A stretch of 43,615 bases of DNA from Varibaculum cambriense (lineage in GTDB: Bacteria > Actinomycetota > Actinomycetes > Actinomycetales > Actinomycetaceae), in NCBI RefSeq assembly GCF_022133705.1, contig NZ_JAKNHJ010000020.1:1-43615 (forward strand). The letters run 5' to 3'. Position 1 is the first letter of the stretch, and each line of letters opens with the position of its first letter. Shown here piece by piece: positions 2,596 to 32,216 of the stretch. Below the pieces are notes generated by a model that was not told the origin of the DNA, made no database searches, and saw only the letters and a list, made by a program, of their open reading frames with translations. The translations under genes were made by a program, and so were the position numbers.

Positions 2596-2701
2596 GCGTG
2601 GGAGTAGGTTTTATCCGAGTAGGCGCGGTGGGCATAAGAATTTGGAAAATGTCGCTACGTTTTCCAAATTCTTGGGCAGGAGGAAAAACCTACTCCCGCG
2701 C
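2596..2701. repeat. Nested-palindrome intergenic element, copy 1
   Basis: Outer arms GCGTGGGAGTAGGTTTT (2596-2612) and AAAACCTACTCCCGCGC (2685-2701) are complementary with one wobble position. Inside is a perfect 14-bp hairpin, AAGAATTTGGAAAA (2636-2649) and its complement (2660-2673), with a 10-base loop. Between arm and hairpin lie two segments shared with other copies, ATCCGAGTAGGCGCGGTGG on the left and GGGCAGGAGGAAAA on the right. It sits between the convergent 3' ends of the cadD-like gene and the ABC-2 operon, so it could terminate both transcripts. Confidence 0.85.
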
Positions 2702-2720
2702 GAACAGACGCCGCTTTCTT

Positions 2721-3869
2721 TTAGGCACGTCTCCGCAGGCGCGTGATTAGCATGGCGATGCCCCATAGCGCCAGCGTGAAAACTACCTGCACTCCGATAT
2801 TTACCCAGAACTGTGAGGCGGCGGCGCCGCTAAAGCTGGTCATTTCGGCTAACGCATTGTTATTGTCGATGTAGTAAAAGCTGGGTAGCGCTCTCCCGAT
2901 GGCTACCACCGCATCTGGCATTAGTTCCCGAGGAATAAACGCCCCGCACAGGAAAGCACTGGCTAGGGCCACCACGTTTACGATGGCGCTGAGGGCTTCC
3001 TTGTTATTGGTAATTTTTGTCATTAAGAAGCCTAAGGCTAGTACCGGCAGCCCAAAAGCCACAATGTTAAGCGCATAGAGTCCCTGTCGTCCGGTATCGG
3101 CGATGCCGGGCAGTAGCAGTCGCACTAAGAGCACATTGAGTGCCACGAGGAACGCTACGATTAGGGCGCAGCCGGCTATTAGGCTTAGGTCAATCCGGAA
3201 GGGATGGGCGGGGGAAACCAGGGTACGTTTACGTACGTTTATTACCGAAAAGGCCGCTAGCACCATAGTGATTACATAAGTGGCGCCGGCCATTAGGGTG
3301 TAGCTGCCAAAGTTATACAGGGCGGTCACGTTGTGGAGTGTTTTTTGATCTAAATGGGAAGTGAGACTGACTTTACTATCCAGTTTCAGGCTAGAGTTTA
3401 CCGCTTTGACCAGCTCGTCCTCGTCCGTTAAATATTGCCCATATCCGGTAGCCAGCCGCAGGAAACGACTTACTAATACCTCGGCCGAGGCGCTCTCGGA
3501 GCTGGGGCGAGATTTTACGTCTACCACCGGTTTTTCGCCTTTGAGGATGGTGGTGGTGAAGTCGTGGGGCAGGTAAACGACGTAGGACAAAGTTTGGTAA
3601 TAGAGGGCGTCGTCGATTTCGCGTTCGCTAGTGCCGGTGTCTGCTTTCTTGGTTTGTCCGGCCAAGTAGGAGTTAAAAGACCGGGTGAGGGCAGTATCGT
3701 TGCCGCGGTTGATAACTAAAACTGTAGGTTTGGAAGCGGTGAAATCACCGGAGGAGCCAGGGCTGGTGTGGAAAGCAGTCAGTCCCATAACCACCATGAT
3801 GGTGGTAAAGAGAATAACGAAAGCAATATTGCGGAGCAGTACCTGCAGGAAACCTTTAAAGACTGTCAT
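2721..3869 (-). CDS. ABC-2 type transporter permease (second permease)
   Basis: This 382-residue protein has the ABC-2 permease layout: one N-terminal membrane segment (about residues 12-30), a large extracytoplasmic domain of roughly 150 residues, then five or six membrane segments up to the C-terminus, ending in the basic RLRRRA. It is the last gene of a three-gene operon and its start overlaps the end of the upstream permease by 14 bases, which implies translational coupling and probably a heterodimeric transmembrane unit. The substrate cannot be told from sequence; this class exports drugs, lipids or peptides. The family call is strong, the substrate unknown. Confidence 0.85.
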   Translation of the reverse strand: MTVFKGFLQVLLRNIAFVILFTTIMVVMGLTAFHTSPGSSGDFTASKPTVLVINRGNDTALTRSFNSYLAGQTKKADTGTSEREIDDALYYQTLSYVVYLPHDFTTTILKGEKPVVDVKSRPSSESASAEVLVSRFLRLATGYGQYLTDEDELVKAVNSSLKLDSKVSLTSHLDQKTLHNVTALYNFGSYTLMAGATYVITMVLAAFSVINVRKRTLVSPAHPFRIDLSLIAGCALIVAFLVALNVLLVRLLLPGIADTGRQGLYALNIVAFGLPVLALGFLMTKITNNKEALSAIVNVVALASAFLCGAFIPRELMPDAVVAIGRALPSFYYIDNNNALAEMTSFSGAAASQFWVNIGVQVVFTLALWGIAMLITRLRRRA

Positions 3870-5115
3870 AGCGTTGCTTCCTTAGGACGAACAGGGAGGC
3901 ACCCAGGAGCACTGCTGAAATAATCAGCAGCAAGGTGACGTCTTGCCAAAAACCATCGAATCCGGGGTGATAGTAGAGGTTATAGAAACCGTCCGTGATT
4001 AGGGCAGTGGGATTTAGTTTATTTACCAGGGGCGCTTTTTGGTCTACTACGTAGCGCATGGTTCCGCCCATCATGCCGGCCAGTACTGCCCCCAACATGG
4101 TGACTGAAATCAAGACTCCAATTTTCATGTTTTCCCCGCCGGGCACGAGCGCGGAAATCGCTACCCCGAAGGACAATCCGACCAGGGCTCCGAGGGAAGT
4201 TAGCAGGAAGGTTAATGCCCAATTGGGGCCAAAATCGATATTGAACAGGACGTGGCACACTGCCACCAGTAAAATCAGTCCCACCAATTGCAGTAGGTAA
4301 CTGGAAATAATCCCGGAAATAATCAGTTTGGTTTTGCTGGTCGGTGCCACCGCTACTCGTCTGCCGATTACCCCCAGGGGTGGCTGGGCATTATTCATCA
4401 CTGTCATGGAGAACATCCCCCCATACAGGGCAGCCATAGCTAGCAGCGAGAAGAACTCTGCCATCAGCAAGTCCATAGATTTGGGGCTGCGGTCACGCAA
4501 AGTAAAGTCGCTCTTAGCGAGTTTGTCTTGAACCGAGGCCGCTACCTGGGAAGGATCAAAGGCAGGAGGCTGGCCGGGCGGAATATTTTGAAAATCCGGC
4601 GGAGAGTGGGCGCGAACTTTTGCTGCCATCTCTCGCTGCGTCAGTTGGCTGATCATATCGGTGCGTTGGGTGATCTCGTCAAGAATCGCTTTCAAGATAG
4701 TTTGCTCCACCCCGTTGGAAGCCAGCGTCAAATGAGCTTTGGCATCCCTGCTGATACCTGCTTGCGAGGAGCCGGTAATCTCGACTACTCCGGAAACTTC
4801 CTCGTCCTCTAAAAGCCATTTTCCTTCCTCTAAGGTCTTGACCATACGCAGTTTCAACAGGGGTTGGGTTTCCGAGCTGACGGGGGAGGAGTCCTTCTTG
4901 CTTAAATCATCGAAAGCGATTTTGAAGGTGCTGTCTTGGTAGACCTGGGAGTTTACTACCGCTACCGGGACGGTATCGAAGGCTTCTTTATTGACAATGT
5001 CACTGAGTGCCCCTTTGAACAGCAAGCCCAGCAGGAGGGGAAAGGCGAGCGTCCAAAAAACCAAGGTGCGGTTGGAAAGCAGTAGCTTTAGGTTGTATCC
5101 GATTAGGTGCCCCAT
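3856..5115 (-). CDS. ABC-2 type transporter permease (first permease)
   Basis: A 419-residue membrane protein with the same design as its downstream partner: a membrane segment at about residues 18-35, a long polar extracytoplasmic region that includes a Pro-rich stretch (PPDFQNIPPGQPPAFDPS), then a block of six hydrophobic segments from about residue 220 onward. It starts two bases after the ATPase gene stops and overlaps the next permease gene, so the three genes are clearly one operon encoding one exporter. ABC-2 permeases of this type (YhgE/Pip-like or NatB-like) export hydrophobic compounds or polymers. No substrate can be assigned. Confidence 0.85.
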   Translation of the reverse strand: MGHLIGYNLKLLLSNRTLVFWTLAFPLLLGLLFKGALSDIVNKEAFDTVPVAVVNSQVYQDSTFKIAFDDLSKKDSSPVSSETQPLLKLRMVKTLEEGKWLLEDEEVSGVVEITGSSQAGISRDAKAHLTLASNGVEQTILKAILDEITQRTDMISQLTQREMAAKVRAHSPPDFQNIPPGQPPAFDPSQVAASVQDKLAKSDFTLRDRSPKSMDLLMAEFFSLLAMAALYGGMFSMTVMNNAQPPLGVIGRRVAVAPTSKTKLIISGIISSYLLQLVGLILLVAVCHVLFNIDFGPNWALTFLLTSLGALVGLSFGVAISALVPGGENMKIGVLISVTMLGAVLAGMMGGTMRYVVDQKAPLVNKLNPTALITDGFYNLYYHPGFDGFWQDVTLLLIISAVLLGASLFVLRKQRYDSL

Positions 5116-5117
5116 AG

Positions 5118-6056
5118 CTAGTCTCGCAATTCCTTGCCGGTTAGCTGCAAGAAAACGTCATTTAGGGTGGGACGCTCCGAGTAAATCGACTCATAAGCTA
5201 TGCCGGCCTGGCTCAACTGGGCGATGAGAGTGGAAACGTGGTTTTGTCCGTGCCGGTAAACTAGCTGGACTGTGCGATTTCTGGTGGTAACTGACTCAAT
5301 TTGGGGATCGGATTCCAGCTTTTCTTTAAGTTCTGGAGGCAGCTCCACCCCCTGCAAAGTAACTTTTTCTTCTATATCAGATAACTGTTTCAACTCATTA
5401 ATGGTGCCTTGCGCAATGATTTCACCCTTGTCAAGAATGATGATGCGGTCGCAAATCTGCTCTACTTCTTCCATATAGTGAGTGGTGTAAACCACCGTGG
5501 CTCCGCGGTCACGCAAAGTGACGATACCGTCCAGGATATTGTTGCGGCTTTGGGGATCGACTGCCACGGTCGGCTCATCCAGGAAAATCAGCTCTGGTTG
5601 ATGGGCGATACCGCACGCTAGGTTTAAGCGGCGCAACAGGCCTCCGGAGAGCTGCTTAGGGCGAAACTTTAGGTACTCCTGCAAGCCCACCAACTTTACT
5701 GCCGCTTCAATTTTTTTCGCGCGTTCGGATTTGTCGGAAATATAGAGCCCGCAAAAATAGTCCAGATTTTGCGCCACGGTTAGCTCATCGAATACTGCTA
5801 CATCTTGGAAGACCACCCCTAGGCGCCGTTTAATGTCAAAAGCATCGGGACGCATTTCTTTCCCGAAAATCTTCACGCTCCCGCTGCCAAAACGCAGCAG
5901 GGACAGCATGCAGTTGATAGCGGTTGATTTACCGGAGCCATTGGGGCCGAGCAGCCCCAGAATTTCGCCTTGACGCACCTGGAAAGTTAACTTATTGAGG
6001 GCGCGCAACTGCTGGTAGTCCTTAGATAGACCCTCTACTTCGATTACGTTGGTCAC
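5118..6056 (-). CDS. ABC transporter ATP-binding protein (ABC-2 exporter)
   Basis: This 312-residue cytoplasmic ATPase powers the two permeases encoded directly downstream. The nucleotide-binding domain fills about residues 1-220: Walker A GPNGSGKST near residue 40, Q-loop VFQD, an LSGGLLRR signature, Walker B LIFLDEPT and the switch histidine in TTHYMEE. The last 90 residues form the accessory C-terminal domain common in DrrA/NatA-type exporters. The signature motif carries LL where most members have Q at the fifth position (LSGGQ), a tolerated variant in this subfamily. It is the first gene of the operon. No regulator lies nearby, and the substrate is unknown. Confidence 0.9.
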   Translation of the reverse strand: MTNVIEVEGLSKDYQQLRALNKLTFQVRQGEILGLLGPNGSGKSTAINCMLSLLRFGSGSVKIFGKEMRPDAFDIKRRLGVVFQDVAVFDELTVAQNLDYFCGLYISDKSERAKKIEAAVKLVGLQEYLKFRPKQLSGGLLRRLNLACGIAHQPELIFLDEPTVAVDPQSRNNILDGIVTLRDRGATVVYTTHYMEEVEQICDRIIILDKGEIIAQGTINELKQLSDIEEKVTLQGVELPPELKEKLESDPQIESVTTRNRTVQLVYRHGQNHVSTLIAQLSQAGIAYESIYSERPTLNDVFLQLTGKELRD

Positions 6057-6276
6057 GACGGTTCTCGCGTTCTTAAAGTGGCTATAGATGTAGCAATTTT
6101 AACAAGGCTAATCCCTTAGGTACCAGTAAACAGGGGTGTTAATCAAGAATTACCCTAACTTTACAGCAGCTTTTAGATAGATTTTCGAGATAGAGGAAAG
6201 AAGAATTTTTCCATCGTAAATTTATGGAGTCGGTTAAGCTGGCAGACAAAGCAGATATCAAAGGATGGGTGAGCTT

Positions 6277-6786
6277 ATGGGGAAGAAACATGTGAAAACT
6301 AACGCCATGCGCGCCCTCGAAAATGCGGGTATTGCAGCGCAAATGACTCAGGTTTCTTCCAAGGGGGAGTTTTTAGATGCGCTCACGGTTGCCCAGGCGC
6401 TGGGGGTGGATCCGAATCTGGTGTATAAAACCCTAGTTTTAGAGGGCGGCCCCGGAGAACATTTCGTGGCGGTAGTACCGGCTACGCACGAGTTAGATTT
6501 GAAGGCTGCCGCCAGGTGCTTTGGGGTAAAGCATTTGACAATGTTGCCCTTAAAACAGTTAACCCCGCTTACCGGTTACCGGAAAGGGGCCTGTTCGCCC
6601 CTGGGAATGAAGAAAGATTTTCCAACGGTAATCGATGAATCTGCTTTTTCGCAAGAAAAAATCTATGTTTCTGCAGGTAAGCGCGGCTATCAGATTCTGG
6701 TGGCGGCAGCAGATTTACAGAGGGTGATTAGCGCAAAGCGAGGGGAGATTTCGCGCCCCCTAAATCATGGCACTCGAACGCCCTAA
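6277..6786 (+). CDS. ybaK: Cys-tRNA(Pro)/Cys-tRNA(Cys) deacylase, YbaK/EbsC type
   Basis: The protein, about 169 residues, belongs to the YbaK/EbsC branch of the INS editing-domain superfamily. Typical YbaK motifs are visible: KTNAMRALENAGI at the start, DPNLVYKTLV, a VPATHELDLKAAAR segment, TGYRKGACSPLGMKK, and YVSAGKRGYQI near the end. YbaK hydrolyses Cys-tRNA(Pro) made in error by prolyl-tRNA synthetase, acting in the cytoplasm. I chose ATG 6277 because GGGTGAG lies just upstream; ATG 6265 in the same frame would add four residues. It is followed after 155 bases by mntH, a gap with its own operator-like site, so the two genes are probably separate transcripts. Confidence 0.9.
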   Translation: MGKKHVKTNAMRALENAGIAAQMTQVSSKGEFLDALTVAQALGVDPNLVYKTLVLEGGPGEHFVAVVPATHELDLKAAARCFGVKHLTMLPLKQLTPLTGYRKGACSPLGMKKDFPTVIDESAFSQEKIYVSAGKRGYQILVAAADLQRVISAKRGEISRPLNHGTRTP

Positions 6787-6830
6787 CGGCATTGTTGCGT
6801 GGTTTTTATCTTCCGAAAAATCAAGGTAAA

Positions 6831-6869
6831 GTTTCGGGTATACGAAACTTATCTAAGGGATACCCGAAA
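6831..6869 (+). promoter_or_regulatory. Operator-like inverted repeats upstream of mntH
   Basis: Two overlapping dyads lie about 75-110 bases before the mntH start. GTTTCGGGTATACGAAAC (6831-6848) has 6-bp arms, GTTTCG and CGAAAC. In addition TTTCGGGTAT (6832-6841) recurs inverted as ATACCCGAAA (6860-6869). Manganese transporters of the Nramp family are commonly repressed by DtxR/MntR regulators that bind such palindromes; I do not recognise this as a known consensus, so its role is inference from position. Confidence 0.5.
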
Positions 6870-6941
6870 AACGGCTAAGGGAAAGTATAAGTCTAGCTAG
6901 ATGAAGTAGTTTCCCCGATACAGAAAGGTGAAGCTGCGCAG

Positions 6942-8207
6942 ATGGAAAAGCATCCGACTCCAGATTCTCAGAATGCTCCCGACGCTAAATCAGCAGCCAA
7001 GAAAGGGCTGGTTCCGTTACTAGGACCAGCCTTCGTAGCGGCAGTAGCCTATGTTGATCCCGGGAACGTAGCCGCCAATATCACTGCTGGAGCCCGCTAT
7101 GGCTACCTGCTGGTGTGGGTATTGGTGCTTGCCAACCTGATGGCGGTAATCATTCAATATCAAAGCGCCAAACTGGGGCTAGTAACCGGGAAATCTCTAC
7201 CGGAGATTTTGGGGGATCGGCTTCCCAAAGGTAAACGCATCGCGTTTTGGATCCAAGCGGAGATTATCGCCGCCGCCACCGACCTCGCCGAAATCGTGGG
7301 GGGCGCAATCGCTCTGCAGCTACTGTTTGGGCTGCCGCTGTTGGCAGGGGGCTTTATCGTAGGCTGTGTGTCGTTAGCGCTGCTAGTTTTTCAGAATGAA
7401 CGCCGGCAAAAACAGTTCGAAACTATCGTGGTCGGTTTGCTAGTAATCATTACCGTAGGCTTCTTGTCGGGGCTGGTGATTAGCCCGCCTGATCCTGCGG
7501 GAATGTTGGGGGGATTACTGCCCCGTTTTGCCGGCACCGACACCGTGCTGATCGCGGCCTCCATGCTGGGGGCAACGGTTATGCCGCACGCTATTTACCT
7601 GCATTCTTCGCTGGTAAATCACCGTTTCCCGGAGCGAGGCTCTCGCGATATTCCCCACCTGTTACGTGCCTCCAAACATGACGTGGCCTATGCGCTATTT
7701 GTCGCGGGAGCGGTCAATATTGCGCTGTTATTGCTGGCCGCCTCGGCGCTCGCTGGAAAGAGCGGCACCGATACTATCGAGGGCGCACATGCCGCTATCG
7801 AAAATGCTCTGGGCAGTGGAATCGGAGTAATTTTTGCGATTGGCCTGCTAGCTTCCGGTCTCGCTTCCACTTCGGTAGGTGCTTATGCGGGTTCGGAAAT
7901 CATGGGCGGGCTACTGCATGTGCGGGTACCACTTTTCTTGCGCCGTCTAATCACCCTGATTCCCGCGCTGCTGATTCTGTGGCTCTACCCCAACCCCACC
8001 TGGGCATTAGTTGTTTCCCAGGTAGCGCTGTCTTTCGGGATTCCCCTGGCGGTAGTGCCGCTTGCTGTCTATACCCGTAAGAAAGAACTGATGGGCAGCT
8101 ACACCGATAGCCAGGCAATGCGTTGGACGATGGGCGCCATCGCGGGCTTGATAATCGCCCTGAATCTGCTGCTGGTGGTGCTCACTTTCGTGGGAGTTGA
8201 CGTATAA
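6942..8207 (+). CDS. mntH: Nramp family Mn2+/divalent metal:H+ symporter
   Basis: A 421-residue membrane protein with the 11-segment Nramp fold. The metal-binding signature DPGNVAANITAGA is in the first membrane segment (about residues 43-55) and the matching sixth-segment motif MPHAIYLHSSLV appears near residue 213; together these hold the Asp, Asn and Met ligands of the family. It imports Mn2+ (and possibly Fe2+ or other divalent ions) driven by protons across the cytoplasmic membrane. The start ATG 6942 has AAGGTGA about ten bases before it. Inverted repeats upstream suggest metal-dependent repression. A strong hairpin follows the gene. The family call is secure. Confidence 0.95.
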   Translation: MEKHPTPDSQNAPDAKSAAKKGLVPLLGPAFVAAVAYVDPGNVAANITAGARYGYLLVWVLVLANLMAVIIQYQSAKLGLVTGKSLPEILGDRLPKGKRIAFWIQAEIIAAATDLAEIVGGAIALQLLFGLPLLAGGFIVGCVSLALLVFQNERRQKQFETIVVGLLVIITVGFLSGLVISPPDPAGMLGGLLPRFAGTDTVLIAASMLGATVMPHAIYLHSSLVNHRFPERGSRDIPHLLRASKHDVAYALFVAGAVNIALLLLAASALAGKSGTDTIEGAHAAIENALGSGIGVIFAIGLLASGLASTSVGAYAGSEIMGGLLHVRVPLFLRRLITLIPALLILWLYPNPTWALVVSQVALSFGIPLAVVPLAVYTRKKELMGSYTDSQAMRWTMGAIAGLIIALNLLLVVLTFVGVDV

Positions 8208-8302
8208 ACCGGTGTCTGTAAAGAGCTAGGTTATCTCGGGAAAGCAGCCTGCGTCCTCGCGATTGGTTTTGGTATCCGGGAGAGTAGATCTAAAAGTATT
8301 AA

Positions 8303-8343
8303 GGGTGCGTCCTCGAGAACGAACCATTCTCGAGGACGCACCC
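8303..8343. terminator. Bidirectional terminator-like hairpin between mntH and glgB
   Basis: GGGTGCGTCCTCGAGAA and TTCTCGAGGACGCACCC form a perfect 17-bp stem with a 7-base loop. It lies between the convergent 3' ends of mntH and glgB. The A/T-rich flanks (TATTAA on the left, TATTAAG on the right) give weak T tracts in both directions, which suits a bidirectional terminator. Confidence 0.75.
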
Positions 8344-8375
8344 TATTAAGCCATTAAAGTGGCTAAGCTAGTGAT

Positions 8376-10559: not shown

Positions 10560-10711
10560 GCCTCTAGCGTGTCACGAATCGCCCAATAATTCTTTAGAAT
10601 AACGCCCCGATTTCCAATTATTTTTTCACCCCGAGTTCCAGCAGCGTGCATAGCTTAATGTCATCTGGTTTTATTATTCGGGGCTGGCTCGGTAAAAGCA
10701 CTCCGGCTAAA

Positions 10712-10877
10712 GCGCGGGGGAGAAGTTTTTCCTCCTGCCCAAAATCTAAAAAGCTGTGGCTTTTTAGATTTGCTTATTAAGCCCGGGAAAAGTTCTGATT
10801 TATAACCAGGTATCCGAAAATTAGTCTTGCGATTACTAAGCTGTCTAGCCTGCTCGGATAAAACTTCTCCCCCACGC
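10712..10877. repeat. Nested-palindrome intergenic element, copy 2
   Basis: The outer arms GCGCGGGGGAGAAGTTTT (10712-10729) and AAAACTTCTCCCCCACGC (10860-10877) pair throughout except one wobble. This copy lies in the opposite orientation to copy 1: TTTCCTCCTGCCCAA follows the left arm and CTGCTCGGATAAAA (in part GCCTGCTCGG) precedes the right. The inner hairpin AAATCTAAAAAG / CTTTTTAGATTT (10742-10771) has a sequence unrelated to the inner hairpin of copies 1, 3 and 4 but occupies the same place. The interior is about 60 bases longer than in copy 1. Confidence 0.8.
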
Positions 10878-10924
10878 AAGGGGCACAGCTTGTGCGGGAT
10901 TTTCGCAAGGTACGTACTGAGCGT

Positions 10925-11027
10925 GCAGGGGCGGATTTATGCCGCAGGGTAGGCTCCGGGCACTAAATCCGTGAAAATGCCAGAGCATTTTCCGGATTTC
11001 GGGGCGAGAGGCAAAATCCGCCCCTGC
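10925..11027. repeat. Nested-palindrome intergenic element, divergent family
   Basis: Outer arms GCAGGGGCGGATTT (10925-10938) and AAATCCGCCCCTGC (11014-11027) are perfectly complementary over 14 bp. Inside is a hairpin of AAATCCgtGAAAATGC and GCATTTTCcGGATTT (10965-10999) with a CAGA loop. The design equals that of the other elements (G-rich outer arm ending in TTT, offset inner hairpin) but the sequence, including the spacer segments, is different. It lies just downstream of gabD. Confidence 0.75.
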
Positions 11028-11062
11028 GGTCGGAATCTAGTGGTGACGTAGGTGGGGAAAGG

Positions 11063-24159: not shown

Positions 24160-24182
24160 ATACTCCTCTTACATGATGCAGT

Positions 24183-26480
24183 CTAGGAAGCTTCGATAGA
24201 CATAATATGGGCAGGACGATCGTAGGGGTTGAGCTCGAAATAGTTAGCCGAGCCCCAATCGTAGACTTTCCCATCTAGCTCGTCGCGTACTTTAAAGCAG
24301 GACGAGGAAGATCCACTGATCTTTAGCGCCGACAGATCCAGGTGAATGGCGCCAATCGCGGTATCGTGCGGATCCAGATTGACTACCACAATCACCGTGT
24401 CAGCCACCCCGGTAGGAGATTCCCAAGCATCTAGGTGTCGGGAGAAACAGACCACCCCCGGATGGGTAGTTTCATGAATCTTCAAATTCCGCAGACGCTG
24501 CAAAGCCGGGTGACGGCGGCGAATCCCATTCAAAGTAGTTAGCAAGCCCATCATTTCTTGCGCGGTTTCCCCGGAGTAATCACGTGGCTTGTACTCGTAC
24601 TTTTCGTTATCGATTTGCTCCTCAAAGCCGGGACGCTGCACATTTTCAATCAGTTCATAGCCGGAATAAATACCCCAGTTAGGGGAACCAGTAGCTGCCA
24701 AAACTGCCCGCATTTTGAAAGCCTGGATCCCGCCATCTACCATGACCTGGGTCAAAATATCGTGGGTAGTCGGCCAGAAAGAAGGCCGCATATAGGGGCT
24801 GGATTCCCAAGCCACCTCGTCGAAGTATTCTTCAATCTCTTTACGGGTGTTGCGCCAAGTGAAATAGGTATAGGACTGGTGGAAACCTACCTGCGCCAAA
24901 GTGCGCATCATAGCGGGGCGAGTAAACGCCTCCGCCAGGAACAACACTTCGGGATGCTTGTTGCGGAACTCCGCTAAGATTTCTTGCCAGAACTGTACCG
25001 GCTTGGTGTGGGGATTATCCACCCGGAAAATCGTTACCCCATGATCAATCCATTTTTGAATCACGTCGCGTACCGCGTTATATAAGCCGCGATAGTCTTG
25101 ATCAAAAACTAGGGGATAAATATCTTGATATTTCTTGGGAGGATTCTCCGCATAGGCAATCGTGCCATCCGGGCGGTGCTTAAACCACTCGGGATGATTC
25201 TTTACCCAGGGATGATCCGGGGAGCATTGCAGCGCCAAATCCAGCGCTACCTCTAGACCTAGACCTTTCGCTTTCTTAACGAAGTAATCAAAATCGTCAA
25301 AATCGCCCAGATCAGGGTGAATAGCGTCATGTCCCCCCTCGGGGCTGCCGATGCCGTAGGGTGAGCCGGGATCTTCCGGGGTAGCCTCCAAAGAATTATT
25401 ACGTCCCTTACGGAAAGTAGTTCCGATGGGGTGAACCGGAGTTAAATAGGCGACGTCGAACCCCATAGCGGCAATGCGCGGCAAATCAGCGGCGGCAGTG
25501 CGCAAGGTTCCCGTATGCCAATGCCCTTCCTGATCTTTATAGGCGCCGATAGAACGGGGGAAGATCTCGTACCAGGAACCGTAAAGGGCGCGTTCGCGGT
25601 CAACCCGCAAAGGATAGGTGCGGGAAGACTCCAGCAGATCCCGGAGGGGATGAGTCCGGAAGATTCCTCGAATCGAAGAATGAAGCCCCACCGACAGACG
25701 CTCTTGCACCGGACGCGACTGATCCCGCATAGCTTTGGCGGCATCCAAGAGGCGAGCGGCGCTCTTGGCATCCGGTGCCTGCTGGGTGGGATTATTTACG
25801 GCTTCCCCGCCGGCGGCACGTTCAAAAAGCCTGGCGCCTAGCTCAAACTCCATCTCCACATCTTGATCTGCCTGCACCTTAATGGAGGCTTCCTTTGCCC
25901 AGGTCTGATAGGGGTCGCAGAAAGTGTCGACCCTAAAACTCCAGTCCCCAACGCCGGTGGGCTTAATCCAGGCTTCCAGACGATCCAAACCGGGAGCGAC
26001 ATCGTACATCCGGGAGCGCATAGTTTCTTTGCCTTGCGGATCGATCAATACCACTTCTGCCCCTAAAGCATCGTGGCCTTCCCGGAACACCGTGGCGCGC
26101 ACGGGGAAAGATTCGTTCTCGACTGCTTTGGCGGGCCACAGCCCGTCCTCGAAAACCGGTTCAACTTCGGTGACCGGGATTCGTGCCAGGCGAGCCTCGG
26201 GAGAAATAAGGTTTAAAGGCTTTGCGGCAGCTGCTTTGGGGGAGGCTGCTTTCGCCCGGCTAGCGCGCCGGGGAGGAGCGCTGGTAGTAGTTTTAGCTTT
26301 ACTAGCGGAGGCCGTCTTGGCTTTCGCGGTGGTACTCGCCGGGGGAGTAGTGGTGGCGGCCTTGGCGTGAACCGCGGTTTTACGGGAACTGGTGGCGCTC
26401 ACCTTAGAAGATTTTGCCCCCTGACCAGCTGACCTAGTAGTTGAGCGAGTTTTGCGAGAACGAGGCGTATCGCCGGCCAT
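24183..26480 (-). CDS. glgE: Alpha-1,4-glucan:maltose-1-phosphate maltosyltransferase
   Basis: The 765-residue GH13_3 enzyme transfers maltosyl units from maltose-1-phosphate to growing alpha-1,4-glucan. The nucleophile is Asp488 in FRVDNPHTKP and the acid/base is Glu517 in LAEAFTRP; SYTYFTWRNTRKE and the N-terminal RIPVTEVEP segment are diagnostic of GlgE. The first 90 or so residues are an unusual Ala/Lys/Ser/Thr-rich basic extension, without which the enzyme would have the normal 670-residue length. ATG 26480 has GGAGACACC directly before it. It is the first gene of the glgE-treS-mak operon. GlgE is a known essential enzyme in mycobacteria because maltose-1-phosphate is toxic when it accumulates. 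Confidence 0.96.
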   Translation of the reverse strand: MAGDTPRSRKTRSTTRSAGQGAKSSKVSATSSRKTAVHAKAATTTPPASTTAKAKTASASKAKTTTSAPPRRASRAKAASPKAAAAKPLNLISPEARLARIPVTEVEPVFEDGLWPAKAVENESFPVRATVFREGHDALGAEVVLIDPQGKETMRSRMYDVAPGLDRLEAWIKPTGVGDWSFRVDTFCDPYQTWAKEASIKVQADQDVEMEFELGARLFERAAGGEAVNNPTQQAPDAKSAARLLDAAKAMRDQSRPVQERLSVGLHSSIRGIFRTHPLRDLLESSRTYPLRVDRERALYGSWYEIFPRSIGAYKDQEGHWHTGTLRTAAADLPRIAAMGFDVAYLTPVHPIGTTFRKGRNNSLEATPEDPGSPYGIGSPEGGHDAIHPDLGDFDDFDYFVKKAKGLGLEVALDLALQCSPDHPWVKNHPEWFKHRPDGTIAYAENPPKKYQDIYPLVFDQDYRGLYNAVRDVIQKWIDHGVTIFRVDNPHTKPVQFWQEILAEFRNKHPEVLFLAEAFTRPAMMRTLAQVGFHQSYTYFTWRNTRKEIEEYFDEVAWESSPYMRPSFWPTTHDILTQVMVDGGIQAFKMRAVLAATGSPNWGIYSGYELIENVQRPGFEEQIDNEKYEYKPRDYSGETAQEMMGLLTTLNGIRRRHPALQRLRNLKIHETTHPGVVCFSRHLDAWESPTGVADTVIVVVNLDPHDTAIGAIHLDLSALKISGSSSSCFKVRDELDGKVYDWGSANYFELNPYDRPAHIMSIEAS

Positions 26481-26608
26481 GGTGTCTCCTTATTAGACGG
26501 ACTGCTTCCCCTCCAGCCTAACAAGAGGTAGTGCGCCTCGCGTCCTTTCCGCTGTCAGCAAGCAATAAAAGTGAGCGTAAAGTACGGCTTCTTTGGAAAA
26601 AAACGGTT

Positions 26609-27274
26609 TTAACCATCGGTATCCGAGGCCGGGCCGTCTAAGGAAATCTTCGGACCGAGATAGGTGGGTTTTTGCTCGGTAAGCACCCAAGCAACATCCT
26701 TGGTGCGCGCCAAATATTCGCGGAGGTTACGTTCTACTTGCCCCCGATACGCATTACCGGCCGCACCTACTCCCCAAACCTCGATACCGCGGCTTTGACA
26801 ATCGTAGAGGGCGCGGGGCAGATGATAGGGCTGAGTCACTACGATCGCGCGTTGTACCGAAAAAATCGCTTCCGCGCGATAAGCCGATTCATAGGTAGAA
26901 AAACCGGCATGATCAGCATAAATCACCTGGGGGCTAATCCCATGCTTAATCAGCCACTGGCGCATCGCCTTGATCTCGTCATAGTGAACCTGTCCGTGAT
27001 CACCGCTAATCAAGATTGTCTTCGCCGCTCCGGCCTGATACAGATTCAAAGCAGTTTGCAGACGGTGGGTAAGCATCGGCGAGGGCGAGCCATTAGGCTT
27101 TACCCCCGCCCCCAAAACCAAGATCACCTGGGCATCCTGATCTTTAGCGTCAGATAACGAAACAATCTGATCTTTGGTTTTCTGCCAAACATAAATATTG
27201 GTTCCCGCCACCACAATAGCGGCAATCACCACCAGGGTAATCACTAGCCGGATCAGGCCACGTAAAGCACGCAT
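26609..27274 (-). CDS. YdcF/SanA family (DUF218) membrane-anchored protein
   Basis: The protein has 221 residues. An N-terminal hydrophobic segment (residues 7-27) anchors a DUF218 domain outside or at the membrane. The domain carries VILVLGAGVKPNGSPSPMLTHRL, TILISGDHG and IVVTQPYHLPRALYDC, the recognisable SanA/YdcF motifs. SanA is linked to vancomycin resistance and envelope barrier function in enterobacteria; the reaction is unknown. It starts four bases after trpS stops and lacks a good ribosome site of its own, so it is probably translated by coupling to trpS. Confidence 0.85.
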   Translation of the reverse strand: MRALRGLIRLVITLVVIAAIVVAGTNIYVWQKTKDQIVSLSDAKDQDAQVILVLGAGVKPNGSPSPMLTHRLQTALNLYQAGAAKTILISGDHGQVHYDEIKAMRQWLIKHGISPQVIYADHAGFSTYESAYRAEAIFSVQRAIVVTQPYHLPRALYDCQSRGIEVWGVGAAGNAYRGQVERNLREYLARTKDVAWVLTEQKPTYLGPKISLDGPASDTDG

Positions 27275-27278
27275 GAGG

Positions 27279-28382
27279 CTAGTAAACCATGTTCATCGCC
27301 TGGCGAACCTCTGACAAGGTCTGGTCAGCTACCTCATTGGCGCGTTGATTTCCGCGCTCTAGTACCTGCCACAAATAACCAGGGTCAGCCAAGAGTTCCG
27401 CGCGCCGCGCCCTAATCGGGGACAGAGCGCCATCTAAAGCCTCGGTGAGCACCTGTTTTAGCTTTCCTGCCCCCTGATCTCCGATTTCCTCGGCCAACGC
27501 GTGCGGATCCTGTCCACTAGCCAGGCCGGCCAGCCGTAACAGGTTCGAAACCTCGGGGCGATTCTCCGGATCATAAGTAATCTGGCGCTGCGCATCCGTC
27601 TTCGCGCGTTTAATCAACTTCGCAGTTTCGTCACTGGTCATTCCCAGTTCCACCGTGTTACCGCGCGACTTCGACATTTTTTCGCCATCGAGTCCCAAAA
27701 TCAGGGCGCCATCACCAGAAAGCAGTCCTTCCGGACGGGGGAACACCCGATGTTCCAAGGAAGACTTACGCCGGAAAACCCGCTCGAAACGATCCGAAAT
27801 CACCCGCGCCTGCTCCAAGTGAGGAAGTTGATCTTTACCCACTGGCACCAGGTTCGCTTTACAGAACAAAATATCGGCCGCCTGATGTACCGGGTAAGTC
27901 AGCAATAATCCCGACATGGGACGCTGCGAAGCCTCCAACTCTGCCTTCACCGTGGGGTTGCGGTGTAGCTCCGCCTCAGTCACCAACGACAGGAACGGCA
28001 ACATTAACTGGTTAGCTGCCGGCACCGATGAGTGCGTGAAAATCGTGGTGTTTTCCGGATCTAGGCCGCAAGCAATATAGTCTGCCAGCATATTCAGGAC
28101 GCGCTCACGGATCGGGCCAGTGCCCTCCCGATCGGTAATCACCTGGTAGTCCGCGATCAGAATCCAGGTTTCCACCCCGCGCTGCTGGATCGTGACTCGG
28201 TTCTTAATTGTCCCGAAATAATGCCCCAAATGGAGGGCGCCCGTGGGGCGATCCCCGGTAAGTACCCGGAACTTGGACGGATCCTTATCAATCGCTGCCT
28301 CAATCTCTTGAGATTTCAGCTCTGCCCGCTTCAAAGAAGCCGCATCAGTGGAATTTTCTAGTTTCTCGCCGCTATCGCTCAT
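27279..28382 (-). CDS. trpS: Tryptophan--tRNA ligase
   Basis: The protein, 367 residues, charges tRNA-Trp with tryptophan. It has the class I synthetase signatures: GALHLGHYFGT (the HIGH-type motif, about residue 45) and EKMSKSRGNTV (KMSKS). DILFCKANLVPVGKDQLPHLEQAR is a typical TrpS segment. I chose ATG 28382; the frame is open to a TTG at 28430, which has no family support. The N-terminal 35 residues before the catalytic core are a little longer than in E. coli TrpS. The downstream ydcF-like gene is co-transcribed. Confidence 0.95.
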   Translation of the reverse strand: MSDSGEKLENSTDAASLKRAELKSQEIEAAIDKDPSKFRVLTGDRPTGALHLGHYFGTIKNRVTIQQRGVETWILIADYQVITDREGTGPIRERVLNMLADYIACGLDPENTTIFTHSSVPAANQLMLPFLSLVTEAELHRNPTVKAELEASQRPMSGLLLTYPVHQAADILFCKANLVPVGKDQLPHLEQARVISDRFERVFRRKSSLEHRVFPRPEGLLSGDGALILGLDGEKMSKSRGNTVELGMTSDETAKLIKRAKTDAQRQITYDPENRPEVSNLLRLAGLASGQDPHALAEEIGDQGAGKLKQVLTEALDGALSPIRARRAELLADPGYLWQVLERGNQRANEVADQTLSEVRQAMNMVY

Positions 28383-28460
28383 GGTTCCCAGTCTACGGTG
28401 CCAAGGATATTCCCGGAAAACCGGGTGCAACTGATAAGTCTCTTTCTTGTTGTTAGGTGT

Positions 28461-28626
28461 GCGCGGGGTAAAAGTTTTTCCTCCTGCTAATCACCCGGGG
28501 GCGAGATTTTTCCTCCTGCCCAAGAATTTGGAAAACATAGCCACGTTTTCCAAATTCTTATGCCCACCGCACCTGCTCGGATAAAATCTCGCCCCCGGGT
28601 TTACTCGGAAAACTTTTTCCCCACGC
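28461..28626. repeat. Nested-palindrome intergenic element, copy 3a (interrupted outer copy)
   Basis: Arms GCGCGGGGTAAAAGTTTT (28461-28478) and AAAACTTTTTCCCCACGC (28609-28626) are complementary with two differences. Inside the left arm is TTTCCTCCTGC, and before the right arm is ACTCGGA, the same subterminal segments as in the other copies. The middle, where the inner hairpin would be, is instead a complete second element (28494-28599). It lies downstream of the DUF3800 gene and upstream of trpS. Confidence 0.8.
28494..28599. repeat. Nested-palindrome intergenic element, copy 3b (inserted in copy 3a)
   Basis: Arms CCCGGGGGCGAGATTTT (28494-28510) and AAAATCTCGCCCCCGGG (28583-28599) match perfectly over 17 bp. 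The inner hairpin is AAGAATTTGGAAAAC / GTTTTCCAAATTCTT, the same stem as in copies 1 and 4. The spacers TCCTCCTGCCC and TGCCCACCGCACCTGCTCGGAT are present. It is complete and sits inside the arms of copy 3a. Confidence 0.85.
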
Positions 28627-29038
28627 TTAGCCAATACATGTAAGCTGCTAGGTCTGGTTGGACCCGGGTTTTCGGGAATGGAGGTAAGTAAGAGGAGCGT
28701 GTCCCTGTTAAGTTGCGCGTGCAGTTGATTATCAGGTGCCTTGAAAATTGGTGGTAGTTCCGCGCGTGTGGATTGTAATTATTGCTCTTGGTATTCTTCG
28801 ACCGGTATTGCCGGAATCATTATTTGACATTTGAGTTATATGAAGGGGATCTTTTTCGTTTTCAGGTGGTCTGTTAACGCAGAGGTTGTCATTGACGAAC
28901 CCAACAATAACGGCACCACGGCTGCAGACATCTGCTCCCTAATGCATGAGCTACCAGCCTGGACTAACTGTTTACCGATTGATGCTGTCGGATGCGAGTG
29001 CGGTTTTTATCAGCAGGATTGAGTGCATGGCTCGCGGT
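28627..29038. other. 412-base region with only a small unrecognised ORF
   Basis: Between the palindromic element and the DUF3800 stop I see no recognisable gene. One plus-strand frame from ATG 28840 to 29022 would give 60 residues (starting MKGIFFVF, then AEVVIDEPNNNGTTAADI). It reads somewhat protein-like and has GAAGGGG near its start, but I know no match, and there is no second line of evidence. It may be a fragment of a gene broken when the island formed. Confidence 0.35.
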
Positions 29039-29851
29039 CTAGTAGCAGGTGGCGTAGTTGCCGAGGAATTTCGGGTAGAGGTCTTTCGTGGTGCTGCTTG
29101 CGGCGCGTATTTTGGAGTGTTCGCTCGTGATCCCACTGAGCCGGTTACCAAAATACTTGAGTGCCCACTTATATTCAGCAAAATCCGAATCATATTTGTA
29201 TGCAGCAATACGGCCAAGGATTGCACATATCCAGTCCGCGCATTGAACCGTTTGATACAGATGACTCTCCACCTCCATCGGCGGCTCCACAAGTTTCGTA
29301 GCATCTTCACTGCTGAACATGAACGCTGCTGCGCCAGCGAAAATCTCCAGTCGTTCCTTCTCGCCCTGTTTGTCGAGCACCATCAACAGATTCTCAGCAT
29401 CAGGCAAATCCCAATTCACTCGTTGAATCAGCTGCTTCATCGCATGGTCGTAACGCTCAGCGTTCGTCTCAGGGGCCTCACTCGGAGTACCGCGCAGTTT
29501 CTCCTGCCCATAAAACACCACGCGAGCATCCAATGATTCCAGCGTGTCTAAAACCCTGAAAATGAGGCGGCGAGTTTCCCGATACTTCTCGATATTCTTC
29601 GTGGTGAGCAACGCTGAGCCTTTCTTTTCCCAATGCTCCACGCGTTTACCTGCCGAGATTACTTTCGCCTCAATTTCTTCACGTAGCCCATGCTCCTTAA
29701 CGAAACGGAAAATACCAGACAGCTTGCGAATGTTCTGGGCTGGGATCACAAAACCGCCGAGTCCGAATACCGGGTGAGTCTTGTAGGACGGGTCGAATCG
29801 GCTCACGTATGCGCCGTTATGCCCAAACTCATCGAAATACCCGACGTACAC
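29039..29851 (-). CDS. DUF3800 domain-containing protein
   Basis: The protein, about 270 residues, carries the DUF3800 hallmark YFDEFGHNG right at its N-terminus (residues about 5-13), then FGLGGFVIP, and an acidic LLMVLDKQGEKERLE segment near the middle, consistent with an RNase H-like metal-binding fold. Function is unknown; members are frequent in mobile and defence-related regions. The frame is open to TTG 29959, but GTG 29851 has GGGAGGT four bases upstream and places the conserved motif at the normal distance from the start. A stable hairpin (29875-29896) lies just before it. Downstream is the palindromic element. It belongs to the accessory island with hsdS. Confidence 0.8.
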   Translation of the reverse strand: MYVGYFDEFGHNGAYVSRFDPSYKTHPVFGLGGFVIPAQNIRKLSGIFRFVKEHGLREEIEAKVISAGKRVEHWEKKGSALLTTKNIEKYRETRRLIFRVLDTLESLDARVVFYGQEKLRGTPSEAPETNAERYDHAMKQLIQRVNWDLPDAENLLMVLDKQGEKERLEIFAGAAAFMFSSEDATKLVEPPMEVESHLYQTVQCADWICAILGRIAAYKYDSDFAEYKWALKYFGNRLSGITSEHSKIRAASSTTKDLYPKFLGNYATCY

Positions 29852-29874
29852 GTCACCTCCCGCTACGAACACGA

Positions 29875-29896
29875 AAGCCCGCGAAATCGCGGGCTT
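29875..29896 (-). terminator. Hairpin with AAGCCCGCG / CGCGGGCTT stem before DUF3800
   Basis: A 9-bp perfect stem (AAGCCCGCG, loop AAAT, CGCGGGCTT) lies 24 bases before the DUF3800 start. On the minus strand the stem ends in CTTTCG, a poor T tract. Stems of this kind are common as terminators in phage-derived DNA. Here it could end transcription from hsdS, or modulate the DUF3800 gene. Confidence 0.5.
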
Positions 29897-30012
29897 CGGA
29901 AGTGGAGCACCGAAATGCGTCCACAGGTAAATATACCAGAGCCCTACCGCAACCAGCAATAGCGGATACTAGGGTCAAGGGTTAATGGCTAAACCACCCC
30001 GACACGCCCGGG

Positions 30013-30057
30013 AAAAGACACACATTTGGGCATTAGCCCAAAATCTTCTGGTCTTTT
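30013..30057. repeat. Small nested inverted repeat
   Basis: AAAAGAC (30013-30019) and GTCTTTT (30051-30057) enclose TTTGGGC-ATTA-GCCCAAA (30025-30042), a perfect 7-bp hairpin. This gives the same outer-arm plus inner-hairpin plan as the larger elements on a smaller scale, but shares no sequence with them. Confidence 0.5.
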
Positions 30058-30228
30058 GCCGTTGGCAGTGCTGTGTTTCGTCAATGTTTGCGCGAATCCT
30101 TGGGGTGAACGAAAGCCGCTGTCATCGGCACTCTCCTGATAAGTGGAGGGTCAACGGCAGGAGTCCTTTGCCATTAGATACTCCTATTTTCGTTATGACG
30201 CAGCAGTGCTGGACAGGTTTTACCGGCG

Positions 30229-31391
30229 CTAATTGCTGGGGGTGAAAATCAGAAGTCGGTCGCGGTAATACTCGTACTGTTTACGCCGAGCTTCGATTTC
30301 TGCCGGTAAACCAGAAGAAAGATCATTTACCAAAGCATCGAACTTATCCAGAATCGCAACAATCCGTTCCTGCTCCGACAAAGGCGGCACTTTAATAACC
30401 ATCTTTTTTAGATCACCACCAGTTACCAAAGGTTGTCCCCCTCCTTTAGCTAGATTGCGTAAATTAATTGCAGTAAGTTGGTGAAAAGCATAACGCAGAT
30501 TCCAACTGGGATTTGGATGCATTATCAACGCATTGTCGCTAACTCCGTAATCACCATCTACTACATAAACCTTCCCTGCATATGCGCCCACACGAGCGAT
30601 TAGTATTGCCGACCCTGAATAAAGAGACCGATTCGTTGTAGCGATTTTTCCGGTTGACCCAAATAAAGGAAATAATCCATCCTCTGCCCAGTCTGATTTT
30701 TTACTTTTCCCAGATTTAACATCAATAATGAGATCCGCAATGGATTTTTCCTCCGAATTGCGAACGTTCTTCAAAAGCGAGTCGCGGTAGTACTCGTACT
30801 GCTTGCGACGAGCTTCTAGCCCCGCTTCTAGCTCCGCTTCTAGCTCCGTAAAAGAATCTAAAATCCGTACGATCTCATTTTGCACTTCCAGTGGCGGCAC
30901 CGGAAATTTTATTTTTGCAAGAGCTTTTTTAGAAATATTGTATCTAGTTACACCATTCGCACATTTTATTATCTGTTTTCGCATGCCTGTAGAACGGAAT
31001 AAATACTTAGCAAATTCCGGTTTAATGCTCTCTGGGAGATGCACAAAAAGCAGAAGCTATTTAGAAAAATGTCTTCCTTTAAATCTGTGGTCACAACCGA
31101 GGTCATCCCGGACTCATCTAAATTTTCTGAGGAGGATGTAAAAATTAAATCCCCTCTTCGTAGACTCGTCTGGCGTTCTCCAACATTGATTCTTACAGAT
31201 TTAAGATCTGAAAAATCGACTTCGATATTATCGAAAACATTTTTATATGAAACGAATTTCGCATTACCATCTGCAAAGTCTGCTTTGGTCTTGCCCTTCA
31301 AACCTGAAATAAAGTCACCCAGGTCGGATATACGCAAGTAATCCACGCCGTTGGGGCAGTGGTGGGAGATTAGGTCTGCTATGCGGCTCAT
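30229..31391 (-). pseudogene. hsdS: Type I restriction-modification specificity subunit, frameshifted
   Basis: HsdS selects the DNA target of a type I restriction-modification enzyme. The reading frame starts at ATG 31391 (GAGGT before it) and runs through the first target-recognition domain to FLNSFCFL, then continues in another frame from 31044 as HLPESIKPEFAKYLFRSTG. The break lies at a run of five T on the coding strand (31045-31049); one T missing or two extra explains it. After the break come the central conserved repeat EARRKQYEYYRDSLL, a second target domain (FPLFGSTGKIATTN) and the C-terminal repeat EARRKQYEYYRDRLL. Rejoined, it is about 387 residues, normal for HsdS. No hsdM or hsdR is nearby. 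It may be phase-variable, decayed, or a sequencing error. Confidence 0.85.
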
Positions 31392-31570
31392 GCGGTTACC
31401 TCGTTTTTGGGGGTGCTGCTGGCGCTTTCGGGGATTGGTGTTTGCGCTGTTGCAGCTTGCAAGATGGACCTCCCGATAATCGCAGCCTCGCCCTCTATAG
31501 TACAAAGTTAGTAACCGCCTAGCGATAAACTTGCCGCCGGTGATCTACTTCAAGACAGATATTTATACGT

Positions 31571-31680
31571 TCGCGCGGGGGAGAGATTTTATCCGAGTGG
31601 GTGCGGTGGGCATAAGAATTTGGAAAACGCCGCGACGTTTTCCAAATTCTTGGGCAGGAGGAAAAATCTCGCCCCCGCGA
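31571..31680. repeat. Nested-palindrome intergenic element, copy 4
   Basis: Arms TCGCGCGGGGGAGAGATTTT (31571-31590) and AAAATCTCGCCCCCGCGA (31663-31680) pair apart from one extra base and one mismatch. The inner hairpin AAGAATTTGGAAAACG / CGTTTTCCAAATTCTT is as in copies 1 and 3b; ATCCGAGTGGGTGCGGTGGG and TGGGCAGGAGGAAAA are the shared spacers. It fills most of the 354-base gap between the antitoxin gene and hsdS; the rest of that gap holds nothing I can name. TATAC occurs on both sides close to the ends, a weak hint of a target duplication. Confidence 0.85.
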
Positions 31681-31745
31681 TATACACACCGGCAGAAATT
31701 TGCCTATTGTGCAGGGATTCTTCCGATTTGATCAGCAACTTATTC

Positions 31746-31988
31746 TCACAAGCAAAGGTGATCTTGTAGCTGGTCAATCGATATAGTGTCCAGTTGTCCT
31801 GCTCGGTACTCGTCAACTTTTTTGAGGAGCCCATACTGGTATTCGAGATTCGGTATTGATTCCTCGAGTGCTTTCGTGAAGTAATAGTTGCGGCTGTGTC
31901 CAGTATTCTTAGCCAGATCGTCATAACGCTTCACTAAATCTACCGGTAACCGAACCACTGTTGGCACAGAATTCACTGCTTTACCCAT
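31746..31988 (-). CDS. Ribbon-helix-helix antitoxin-like protein (RelB/CopG type)
   Basis: The protein, 80 residues, has a ribbon-helix-helix DNA-binding N-terminus: the strand VPTVVRLPVDL, then two helices DLVKRYDDLAKNTG and SRNYYFTKALEESI. A charged helix (YGLLKKVDEYRAGQLDTISIDQLQ) follows, of the kind that wraps a RelE/ParE toxin. I chose ATG 31988 with GGAGG six bases upstream over the longer frame from 32030. No toxin gene follows: 66 bases downstream the palindromic copy 4 begins. So it is an orphan, or its toxin was lost. It lies between palindromic copies 4 and 5 in the same orientation. Confidence 0.75.
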   Translation of the reverse strand: MGKAVNSVPTVVRLPVDLVKRYDDLAKNTGHSRNYYFTKALEESIPNLEYQYGLLKKVDEYRAGQLDTISIDQLQDHLCL

Positions 31989-32055
31989 ATTCATCCTCCC
32001 TGGTTCGGCACTTGTAAACCTTGCTAACAATGTACTACGAAAATACTTCTAGTTA

Positions 32056-32187
32056 CGCGGGGGAGAGATTTTATCCGAGCAGGCGCGGTGGGCATAAGAA
32101 ATAAGATATGAGAAGTATCAGCATCGGCTAGACAGTGGGTTTCCGATATTCTAAGTCAAGGATTGAAAAGCGTGCCTCGCCCCCGCG
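32056..32187. repeat. Nested-palindrome intergenic element, copy 5 (interior replaced)
   Basis: The left part is nearly identical to copies 1 and 4: CGCGGGGGAGAGATTTTATC followed by CGAGCAGGCGCGGTGGGCAT. The right arm CCTCGCCCCCGCG (32175-32187) pairs with the left arm, but the inner hairpin and the GGGCAGGAGG spacer are gone and replaced by about 75 unrelated bases. On the minus strand that interior contains CTGTCTAGCC, also found in the long interior of copy 2. It lies between glgX (3' end) and the antitoxin gene. Confidence 0.75.
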
Positions 32188-32216
32188 TTCCATATGCGAA
32201 AGCTACAAGATGTGGG

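What the first reader, a model, noticed from the sequence alone, without database searches (positions are those of the whole stretch)
2596..32187. A family of nested-palindrome elements in intergenic gaps with covarying arms
Five related elements (2596-2701, 10712-10877, 28494-28599, 31571-31680, 32056-32187), plus an interrupted one at 28461-28626, share the spacer motifs ATCCGAG...GCGGTGGGCAT and GGGCAGGAGGAAAA. Their outer arms differ: GGGAGTAGG, GGGGAGAAG, GGGGCGAGA, GGGGGAGAGA and GGGGTAAAAG. In each copy the opposite arm has changed to match. The inner hairpin is also swapped completely in copy 2 (AAATCTAAAAAG instead of AAGAATTTGGAAAA) yet still pairs. Compensatory change at both levels means the structure is kept, as RNA or as a cruciform. 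I do not recognise it as REP, ERIC or BOX.
Basis: seen in the sequence. Interest (0 to 1): 0.75.

Follow-up and report, generated by a model that had tools for sequence, protein, structure and literature searches.

The report
Nested-hairpin repeats in Varibaculum genomes
Bacteria of the genus Varibaculum carry dozens of copies of a roughly 110-base nested-hairpin DNA element, often close to the ends of genes; its stems differ from copy to copy but still pair, and at one site at least the element has turned around in place between species, which offers a cause for the matching stems other than selection on RNA.

Summary
The window's elements belong to an interspersed family: at least 68 places in the 2.23-Mb genome, 39-51 matches in each of five congeneric genomes, none in 53 genomes outside the genus. 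Named hits give Varibaculum. Two stems of nearly free sequence flank a conserved, G-rich asymmetric internal loop. Covariation is strong (25 of 34 pairs change on both sides). Two findings alter the reading. (1) At 10 of 37 ortholog clusters the element is reversed relative to its flanks. At window e1 this is an in-place inversion with adjacent flank conserved; at most others adjacent flanks no longer align. Matching arms plus inverted spacers are the published mark of replication template switching, so covariation alone does not prove RNA selection. (2) G.T outnumbers A.C on one strand, 85:27, so that strand's fold seems favoured. Where a facing gene 3' end is within 150 nt, it lies on the same side in 45 of 50 loci. 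No Y1/RAYT transposase, Rfam match or target duplication of 3 nt or more was found. Filed as a new variant of interspersed palindromes; its job is unproven.

The parts
2594..2702 (+). Element e1, type A, complete; inner hairpin 2636-2673; between convergent ORFs ending at 2529 and 2721. The gap holds an element with nearly the same arms in all 6 genomes; interior reversed in G001 and G004
10712..10878 (-). Element e2, long variant (167 nt) with an inner hairpin of unrelated sequence; similar long variants at G000 C8:50909-51075 and C19:7396-7562
10920..11031 (+).
28461..28626 (-). Outer element whose interior is replaced by e3 (nested)
28493..28601 (-). Element e3, type A, complete; G001 has the same nesting; G002 has e3 with the left part of the outer element, its right part reduced
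31572..31680 (+). Element e4, type A, complete; inner hairpin 31614-31651
32054..32188 (+). Element e5, degenerate type A: left half and right arm only. In G002 one element carries the left flank of e4 and the right flank of e5

Best explanation
An old, genus-specific family of interspersed palindromic elements (about 110 bp). Anatomy (shown): variable outer stem; a bulged base, a short TCC:GGA stem and facing GA steps; G-rich asymmetric internal loop; variable inner hairpin. Many copies are shared between species at the same sites, often just past a gene's 3' end and in one orientation. Mechanism (inferred): a single strand folds during replication; DNA polymerase switches template between the arms, copies one arm onto the other and sometimes inverts the interior in place. 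On top of this, selection favours the folded form of the ATCCGAG strand, with the internal loop as the recognised part. Most likely job (inferred, weakest step): a structural element that limits transcription running between neighbouring, often convergent, genes. Odds: genus-specific interspersed palindrome family 0.95; in-place inversion as a recurring event in the family 0.75; template switching as cause of inversion and matching arms 0.5; role at gene ends 0.3.
For: Copies and restriction to the genus. Covariation. e1 against G001: 1,292-nt collinear alignment (84%) in which the 108-nt element also matches at 93.5% on the opposite strand; own-orientation identity of the two elements 0.93 against 0.74 the other way, and adjacent 40 nt conserved in the flipped frame, 0.93 on the left to G000 and 0.93 on the right to G002, against a background of about 0.4-0.7. 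10 of 37 both-flank clusters contain a reversed copy. G.T:A.C 85:27, p 3.6e-8; inner stems 43:18 over 118 distinct sequences. Inner stem identity 0.90 against 0.69 and 0.65 for 40-nt flanks over 76 same-orientation ortholog pairs. Facing gene 3' end within 150 nt on the right in 45 and left in 5 of 98 loci. 76 of 168 copies lie between convergent ORFs, 16 between divergent ones.
Against: The strand with the G.T excess is antisense to the nearest gene in most loci with a near 3' end, which does not fit a simple 3'-UTR or terminator role for that gene. T-runs are rare after the elements. Outside e1 and one side of a second locus (E014/E069, 0.80), the 40 nt beside the reversed copies do not align, so separate insertion or larger rearrangement is not excluded there; in 4 of 10 tested pairs the change is larger than the element or displaced, and in one (E136/E159) a second copy lies in the gap. 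The type-A inner loop is reversed in only 2 of 95 copies. Within loci 24 paired changes stand against 162 changes involving an unpaired state, so homogenisation is not fast. Inner hairpin types differ between some orthologs with like arms, which template switching does not explain.
Confidence: 0.45

Rival explanations
1. A structured RNA under ordinary selection: the ATCCGAG strand is transcribed and folds; two free helices hold a conserved internal loop that binds a protein or ligand; compensatory changes are selected one by one through G.U.
For: Covariation; G.U over A.C 85:27; within-locus paired changes mostly of the kind reachable through G.U (18 of 24), and 54 WC/G.U against 25 WC/A.C changes; facing GA steps in all 177 analysed copies (partly by construction, as copies were picked by these spacers).
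Against: G.U pairs are few (53 of 1,494 arm cells in 166 copies). In-place inversion at e1. Left flanks within G000 share mainly type C, type D or other element copies in the matches I looked at (8 flanks, up to 3 matches each). No Rfam match.
Confidence: 0.22
2. A family of switchable elements: a site-specific recombinase inverts the interior between the arms in living cells at many loci.
For: Boundary-exact inversion at e1; tyrosine-recombinase matches in all 6 genomes (all below the integron-integrase cut-off).
Against: Arms differ between copies (78 distinct left 9-mers in 166 copies), whereas a recombinase usually needs a shared crossover site. Side relative to a near gene end is strongly biased (45:5). 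No reads could be examined.
Confidence: 0.1
3. A miniature non-autonomous transposon (MITE-like) that spread in the ancestor of the genus and now decays; reversed copies are separate insertions.
For: Inverted terminal arms, many dispersed copies, nesting, one presence/absence case (E105 in G001 against G002, flanks aligning to within 29 and 34 nt); unalignable sequence beside most reversed copies.
Against: No target duplication of 3 nt or more; arms vary, unlike transposon ends; no parent element with such ends within 6 kb in held loci; 0 of 6 genomes with a Y1 transposase (other transposases not searched); 35 of 48 analysed G000 copies have an ortholog with like arms.
Confidence: 0.18
4. Folded single-strand recombination sites that work like integron attC sites: beside gene 3' ends, one strand active, structure kept rather than sequence, genes exchanged between sites.
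For: Fixed side at gene 3' ends with the favoured strand opposite to the gene; e4 - small ORF - e5 in the window equals one element in G002; G004 joins half of e3 to a half like that of e4.
Against: 0 of 6 genomes with an integron integrase over the cut-off, though none of the 14 control genomes passed it either; no cassette array seen; homologous recombination between copies explains e4/e5 equally well.
Confidence: 0.05

Closest known systems
REP / BIME repetitive extragenic palindromes (GTAG- and CGTC-tagged; PMC3733652, start of abstract and passages)
   Same: Short palindromic, intergenic, many copies, often downstream of genes, single or in mosaics with other repeats
   Different: About 110 bp with two nested stems instead of one 5-13 bp stem; no GTAG/CGTC tag; 0 of 6 genomes with Y1/RAYT; stems free in sequence
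MITEs of bacteria (Correia, RUP, NEMIS; recalled, not compared by sequence)
   Same: Inverted terminal arms, dispersed intergenic copies, no coding capacity
   Different: Arms not conserved between copies; no target duplication of 3 nt or more; the conserved part is an internal loop, not the ends
Inverted repeats shaped by template switching (PMC8604942, abstract and introduction; PMC8794818, abstract and passages)
   Same: Matching arms and an inverted spacer at an orthologous site
   Different: Those reports concern scattered unrelated repeats or RNA-gene stems; here a repeat family is affected
Integron attC sites (recalled)
   Same: Folded single strand, structure over sequence, position after genes
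   Different: No integrase over the cut-off, no cassette array seen

Membership tests
REP/RAYT palindromes | Y1 (RAYT) transposase in the genome | tested here: not met
   PF01797: 0 of 6 genomes at E 0.01; control rings in 6 of 14 genomes
REP/RAYT palindromes | GTAG or CGTC tag at one end of the stem | tested here: not met
   No conserved GTAG/CGTC beside either stem in the 34-copy alignment, by reading; CGTC occurs in the inner hairpin of some copies
MITE | Terminal inverted repeats shared by the copies | tested here: inconclusive
   Arms pair at 7 or more of 9 positions in 166 of 177 copies but have 78 distinct left 9-mers
MITE | Target-site duplication | tested here: not met
   k=3: 6 against 3.0 shuffled (max 8); k=4: 0; k=5: 1; k=6, 8: 0; k=2 is raised, 23 against 12.4 (max 21 of 200 shuffles)
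MITE | Parent transposon with the same ends | tested here: inconclusive
   21 half-pairs with matching arms listed; the five 1.5-2.1 kb apart coincide with two complete copies each; held loci only, and the contents between the nearer halves were not searched for genes
Rfam RNA families | Covariance-model match | tested here: not met
   Only two tRNAs in the window at gathering; for one copy (211 nt) below gathering only mir-8356, rox1 and mir-3913 at E 0.04-0.9
Integron attC | Integron integrase | tested here: inconclusive
   TIGR02249: 0 of 6 genomes over the cut-off, but 0 of 14 controls over it either; weaker tyrosine-recombinase matches in all 6
Intrinsic terminator | T-run directly after the stem | tested here: not met
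   T-run of 4 or more within 20 nt in 9 of 107 (forward) and 6 of 121 (reverse) copies
Inverted repeats under template switching | Homogenised arms together with spacer inversion in orthologs | tested here: met
   Boundary-exact at e1 with covariation; other reversed loci less certain; the cause is not testable here
ERIC, BOX, RUP, Correia | Sequence match to the consensus | not tested
   Not compared; the model matched 0 of 53 genomes outside the genus, which were of the same family or order

The most novel reading that the evidence does not exclude
Varibaculum carries a genome-wide set of some 50 folded-strand sites, each with its own pair of arms, that are actively inverted in living cells by a dedicated machinery which reads the conserved internal loop rather than the arms: a many-locus switch or a strand-specific recombination system at gene ends unlike known invertons or integrons.
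Probability: 0.08. Interest if true: 0.85.

Novelty: new variant of a known kind. Interest (0 to 1): 0.55.

Why it matters
Base-pair covariation is a usual proof of a functional RNA structure. This family has strong covariation and, at one orthologous site clearly and at others probably, DNA-level inversion between the arms, so it is a natural test case for how much covariation replication itself can create. With dozens of copies per genome and many shared sites in six species, the rates of inversion, of arm matching and of selection on one strand could be measured separately. If a protein recognises the conserved loop, it would be an unknown kind of folded-strand site at gene ends.

Tried and rejected
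Rfam at gathering and, for one copy, at E 1: no bacterial family. Y1/RAYT transposase: 0 of 6. Integron integrase: none over the cut-off, in controls neither. Autonomous transposon bounded by half-elements: the five pairs 1.5-2.1 kb apart coincide with two complete copies each. One copy against phages and plasmids: no match. IMG/VR: one contig (L199) with a complete element, by eye bacterial flank. The single non-Varibaculum stretch among 53 (L096, RUG409) shows no arms or hairpin by eye. Splitting the G.T/A.C ratio by the left gene's strand looked different before collapsing loci (38:5 against 13:7) but not after (53:14 against 28:10): dropped. A first inner-helix count used a wrong slice and left out 142 of 177; redone with 172 of 177. 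A scan for other in-place inversions is uninformative for short-loop palindromes, which match both strands; it gave 79 element, 5 fragment and 18 other hits; the 15 others printed were palindromes or a further variant of this family. Rows dropped: 27 of 204 candidate copies, in the part of the list I saw mostly second readings of one copy; a 26-member cluster that merges loci (left out of inversion counts; its members counted singly). Literature: six searches; no listed title or abstract start named a repeat family in Varibaculum; subscription journals are mostly not held.
Full report
1. Observation. The named places were read directly and the repeats recomputed. Three copies are complete, one (10712-10878) is a longer variant, one (32054-32188) is degenerate, and one (28461-28626) is an outer element whose interior has been replaced by another copy. 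A further relative with the same plan but other sequences lies at 10920-11031. Both strands of two copies fold far better than shuffled sequence (z -6.5 to -8.4).

2. Extent. One copy against the own genome gave 73 matches, many of them the inner palindrome on the opposite strand. A covariance model from 34 copies gave 86 matches at E 0.01, 68 places after removing 18 opposite-strand duplicates by hand; the 34 match by construction, and only 150 of 1185 candidates were scored. Of 59 genomes, the 6 of the genus (own included) had 39-57 matches and 0 of 53 others had any at E 0.001, with stricter filters and 65 candidates scored per genome. A pattern scan of one genome for each of 84,980 species found 53 stretches, 52 from three genomes: V. 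cambriense DSM 15806, V. vaginae Marseille-P5644 and one titled Tissierella sp. Marseille-P2918. The 53rd shows no hairpin by eye. Equal contig lengths equate these three with G002, G001 and G005, so the record titled Tissierella is one that the genome collection places in the window's genus. No call names the window's own species.

3. Anatomy. From the ATCCGAG side: outer arm (commonly GCGCGGGG, five variable bases, TTTT), a bulged A, TCC, GA, a G-rich 5' spacer, an inner stem of about 15 bp with a small loop, the 3' spacer GGGCRGGAGG, AAAA and the matching outer arm. Across six genomes 177 copies were analysed, picked by the spacers only, so spacer conservation is partly by construction; arms were not used. 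Facing GA steps are present in all 177. Arms pair at 7 or more of 9 positions in 166 of 177, with 78 distinct left arms. There are 118 distinct inner sequences among 172 copies. Type C lies 31-225 nt from an A/B element in 9 of 10 places (coordinates). A third palindrome, type D, has 25 pattern hits in the own genome, 18 within 300 nt of a place.

4. Covariation. On alignment A2, 25 of 34 pairs have changes on both sides and 133 cells are doubly changed, against 43.1 in shuffles.

5. Inversion. Flank comparison gave 38 usable clusters of orthologous copies with like arms, plus one of 26 members that mixes loci. Of 37 clusters with a pair supported by both flanks, 10 contain a reversed copy and 27 do not. 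One pair was tested per reversed cluster. In two the region aligns collinearly over 1.29 kb while the element itself matches better on the opposite strand (E174/E103, which is window e1, and E060/E124; like-armed second copies lie about 1.5-1.7 kb away in that region of both genomes, so its orthology is less sure). In three the flanks are collinear with indels beside the element; in one a second copy lies in the gap; in four the reversed stretch is larger or displaced. The strictest check is the 40 nt beside the element in the flipped frame: 0.93 at e1 on the left to G000 and on the right to G002, 0.80 on one side for E014/E069, and background (0.42-0.68) for the rest. So in-place inversion is shown at e1 and only likely elsewhere. 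At e1 the interior is forward in G000, G002, G003 and G005 and reversed in G001 and G004, with nearly the same arms. The type-A inner loop is reversed in 2 of 95 copies.

6. Meaning of the covariation. Template switching between inverted repeats homogenises arms and inverts spacers (PMC8604942, abstract and introduction) and has been proposed to create and maintain RNA stems (PMC8794818, abstract and passages). e1 shows both hallmarks, so covariation here is not sufficient evidence for selection on a structure. Within clusters, 24 paired changes (18 of transition type) stand against 162 changes that involve an unpaired state, of which 54 are WC/G.U and 25 WC/A.C (113 genome pairs).

7. Strand asymmetry. 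A DNA-level process blind to strand predicts equal G.T and A.C mismatches. On the ATCCGAG strand there are 85 to 27 with clusters of up to six counted once and the 26-member cluster counted singly, and 43 to 18 in inner stems. The common C-to-T bias of the coding or leading strand would be expected to push the other way in most loci (general knowledge; the local bias was not measured). A strand bias of template switching could also contribute.

8. Setting. Of 168 copies with both neighbours held, 76 lie between convergent ORFs, 76 between codirectional and 16 between divergent ones (mechanical ORFs of 100 aa or more; 26 of 177 copies overlap one; copies, not loci). Per locus, a facing 3' end within 150 nt lies on the right in 45 and on the left in 5 of 98; 34 have it farther and 14 have none. 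The favoured strand is then antisense to that gene. T-runs are rare.

9. Age and mobility. 35 of 48 analysed G000 copies have a like-armed ortholog among the partial regions held (all clusters). Over 76 same-orientation pairs the inner stem is 0.90 identical against 0.65-0.69 for 40-nt flanks; arm identity (0.89) is raised by the clustering rule, which asked for like arms. One copy (E105) has a counterpart gap without element or arms, and one (E165) sits inside the inner hairpin of a type D element (most of the 25 candidate rows there were uninformative). No target duplication of 3 nt or more. Elements mark breakpoints: G002 has one element where the window has e4, a small ORF and e5, and G004 joins half-elements.

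10. Verdict. Confirmed as a genus-specific interspersed family with unusual nested anatomy. I file it as a new variant of interspersed palindromic elements. It fails the tested features of REP/RAYT repeats and Rfam families, fails the target-duplication test for MITEs and is otherwise inconclusive for them, and is inconclusive for attC-like sites.

Noticed in passing
window 10920-11031; G000 C73:40455-40564, C65:96947-97058, C8:51118-51227: Type C elements: same nested plan with other arms and spacers, 31-225 nt from a type A/B element in 9 of 10 places
   Followed up: partly
G000 C9:4271-4289, C12:111027-111045 and 23 further pattern hits: Type D palindrome (GGTAAAAGATRCGAGAGGG ... CTTTTACC) with its own nested hairpin; 18 of 25 hits within 300 nt of a model match; sometimes with an A/B or C element inside
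   Followed up: partly
window 28946-31505: Stretch between e3 and e4 with a type I restriction specificity domain (30229-31044) and a DUF3800 protein (29039-29959); aligns only in pieces with the other five genomes
   Followed up: partly
window 31746-32030: 94-codon ORF between e4 and e5 without a Pfam match; the interval is absent in G002, where one element remains
   Followed up: partly
G000 C3:5853-5960, G001 C4:61527-61633, G002 C6:4178-4286: In three genomes an element lies 79-139 nt from the family match of a 320-aa tyrosine recombinase
   Followed up: no
FQLW01000006.1 (G005 C5): Public record titled Tissierella sp. Marseille-P2918 belongs to the window's genus in the genome collection; no taxon of that name in the NCBI taxonomy copy
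   Followed up: partly
window 39347-39457 and 43382-43492: Two 111-nt direct repeats, 91% identical, in the neighbourhood of tRNA genes (38794-38875 and 43562-43615)
   Followed up: no
L199 (IMG/VR contig), 4070 bases: Complete element near a regulator-like ORF, a transposase-like ORF, tRNA-like stretches and a recombinase-like ORF (all by eye, no search)
   Followed up: no
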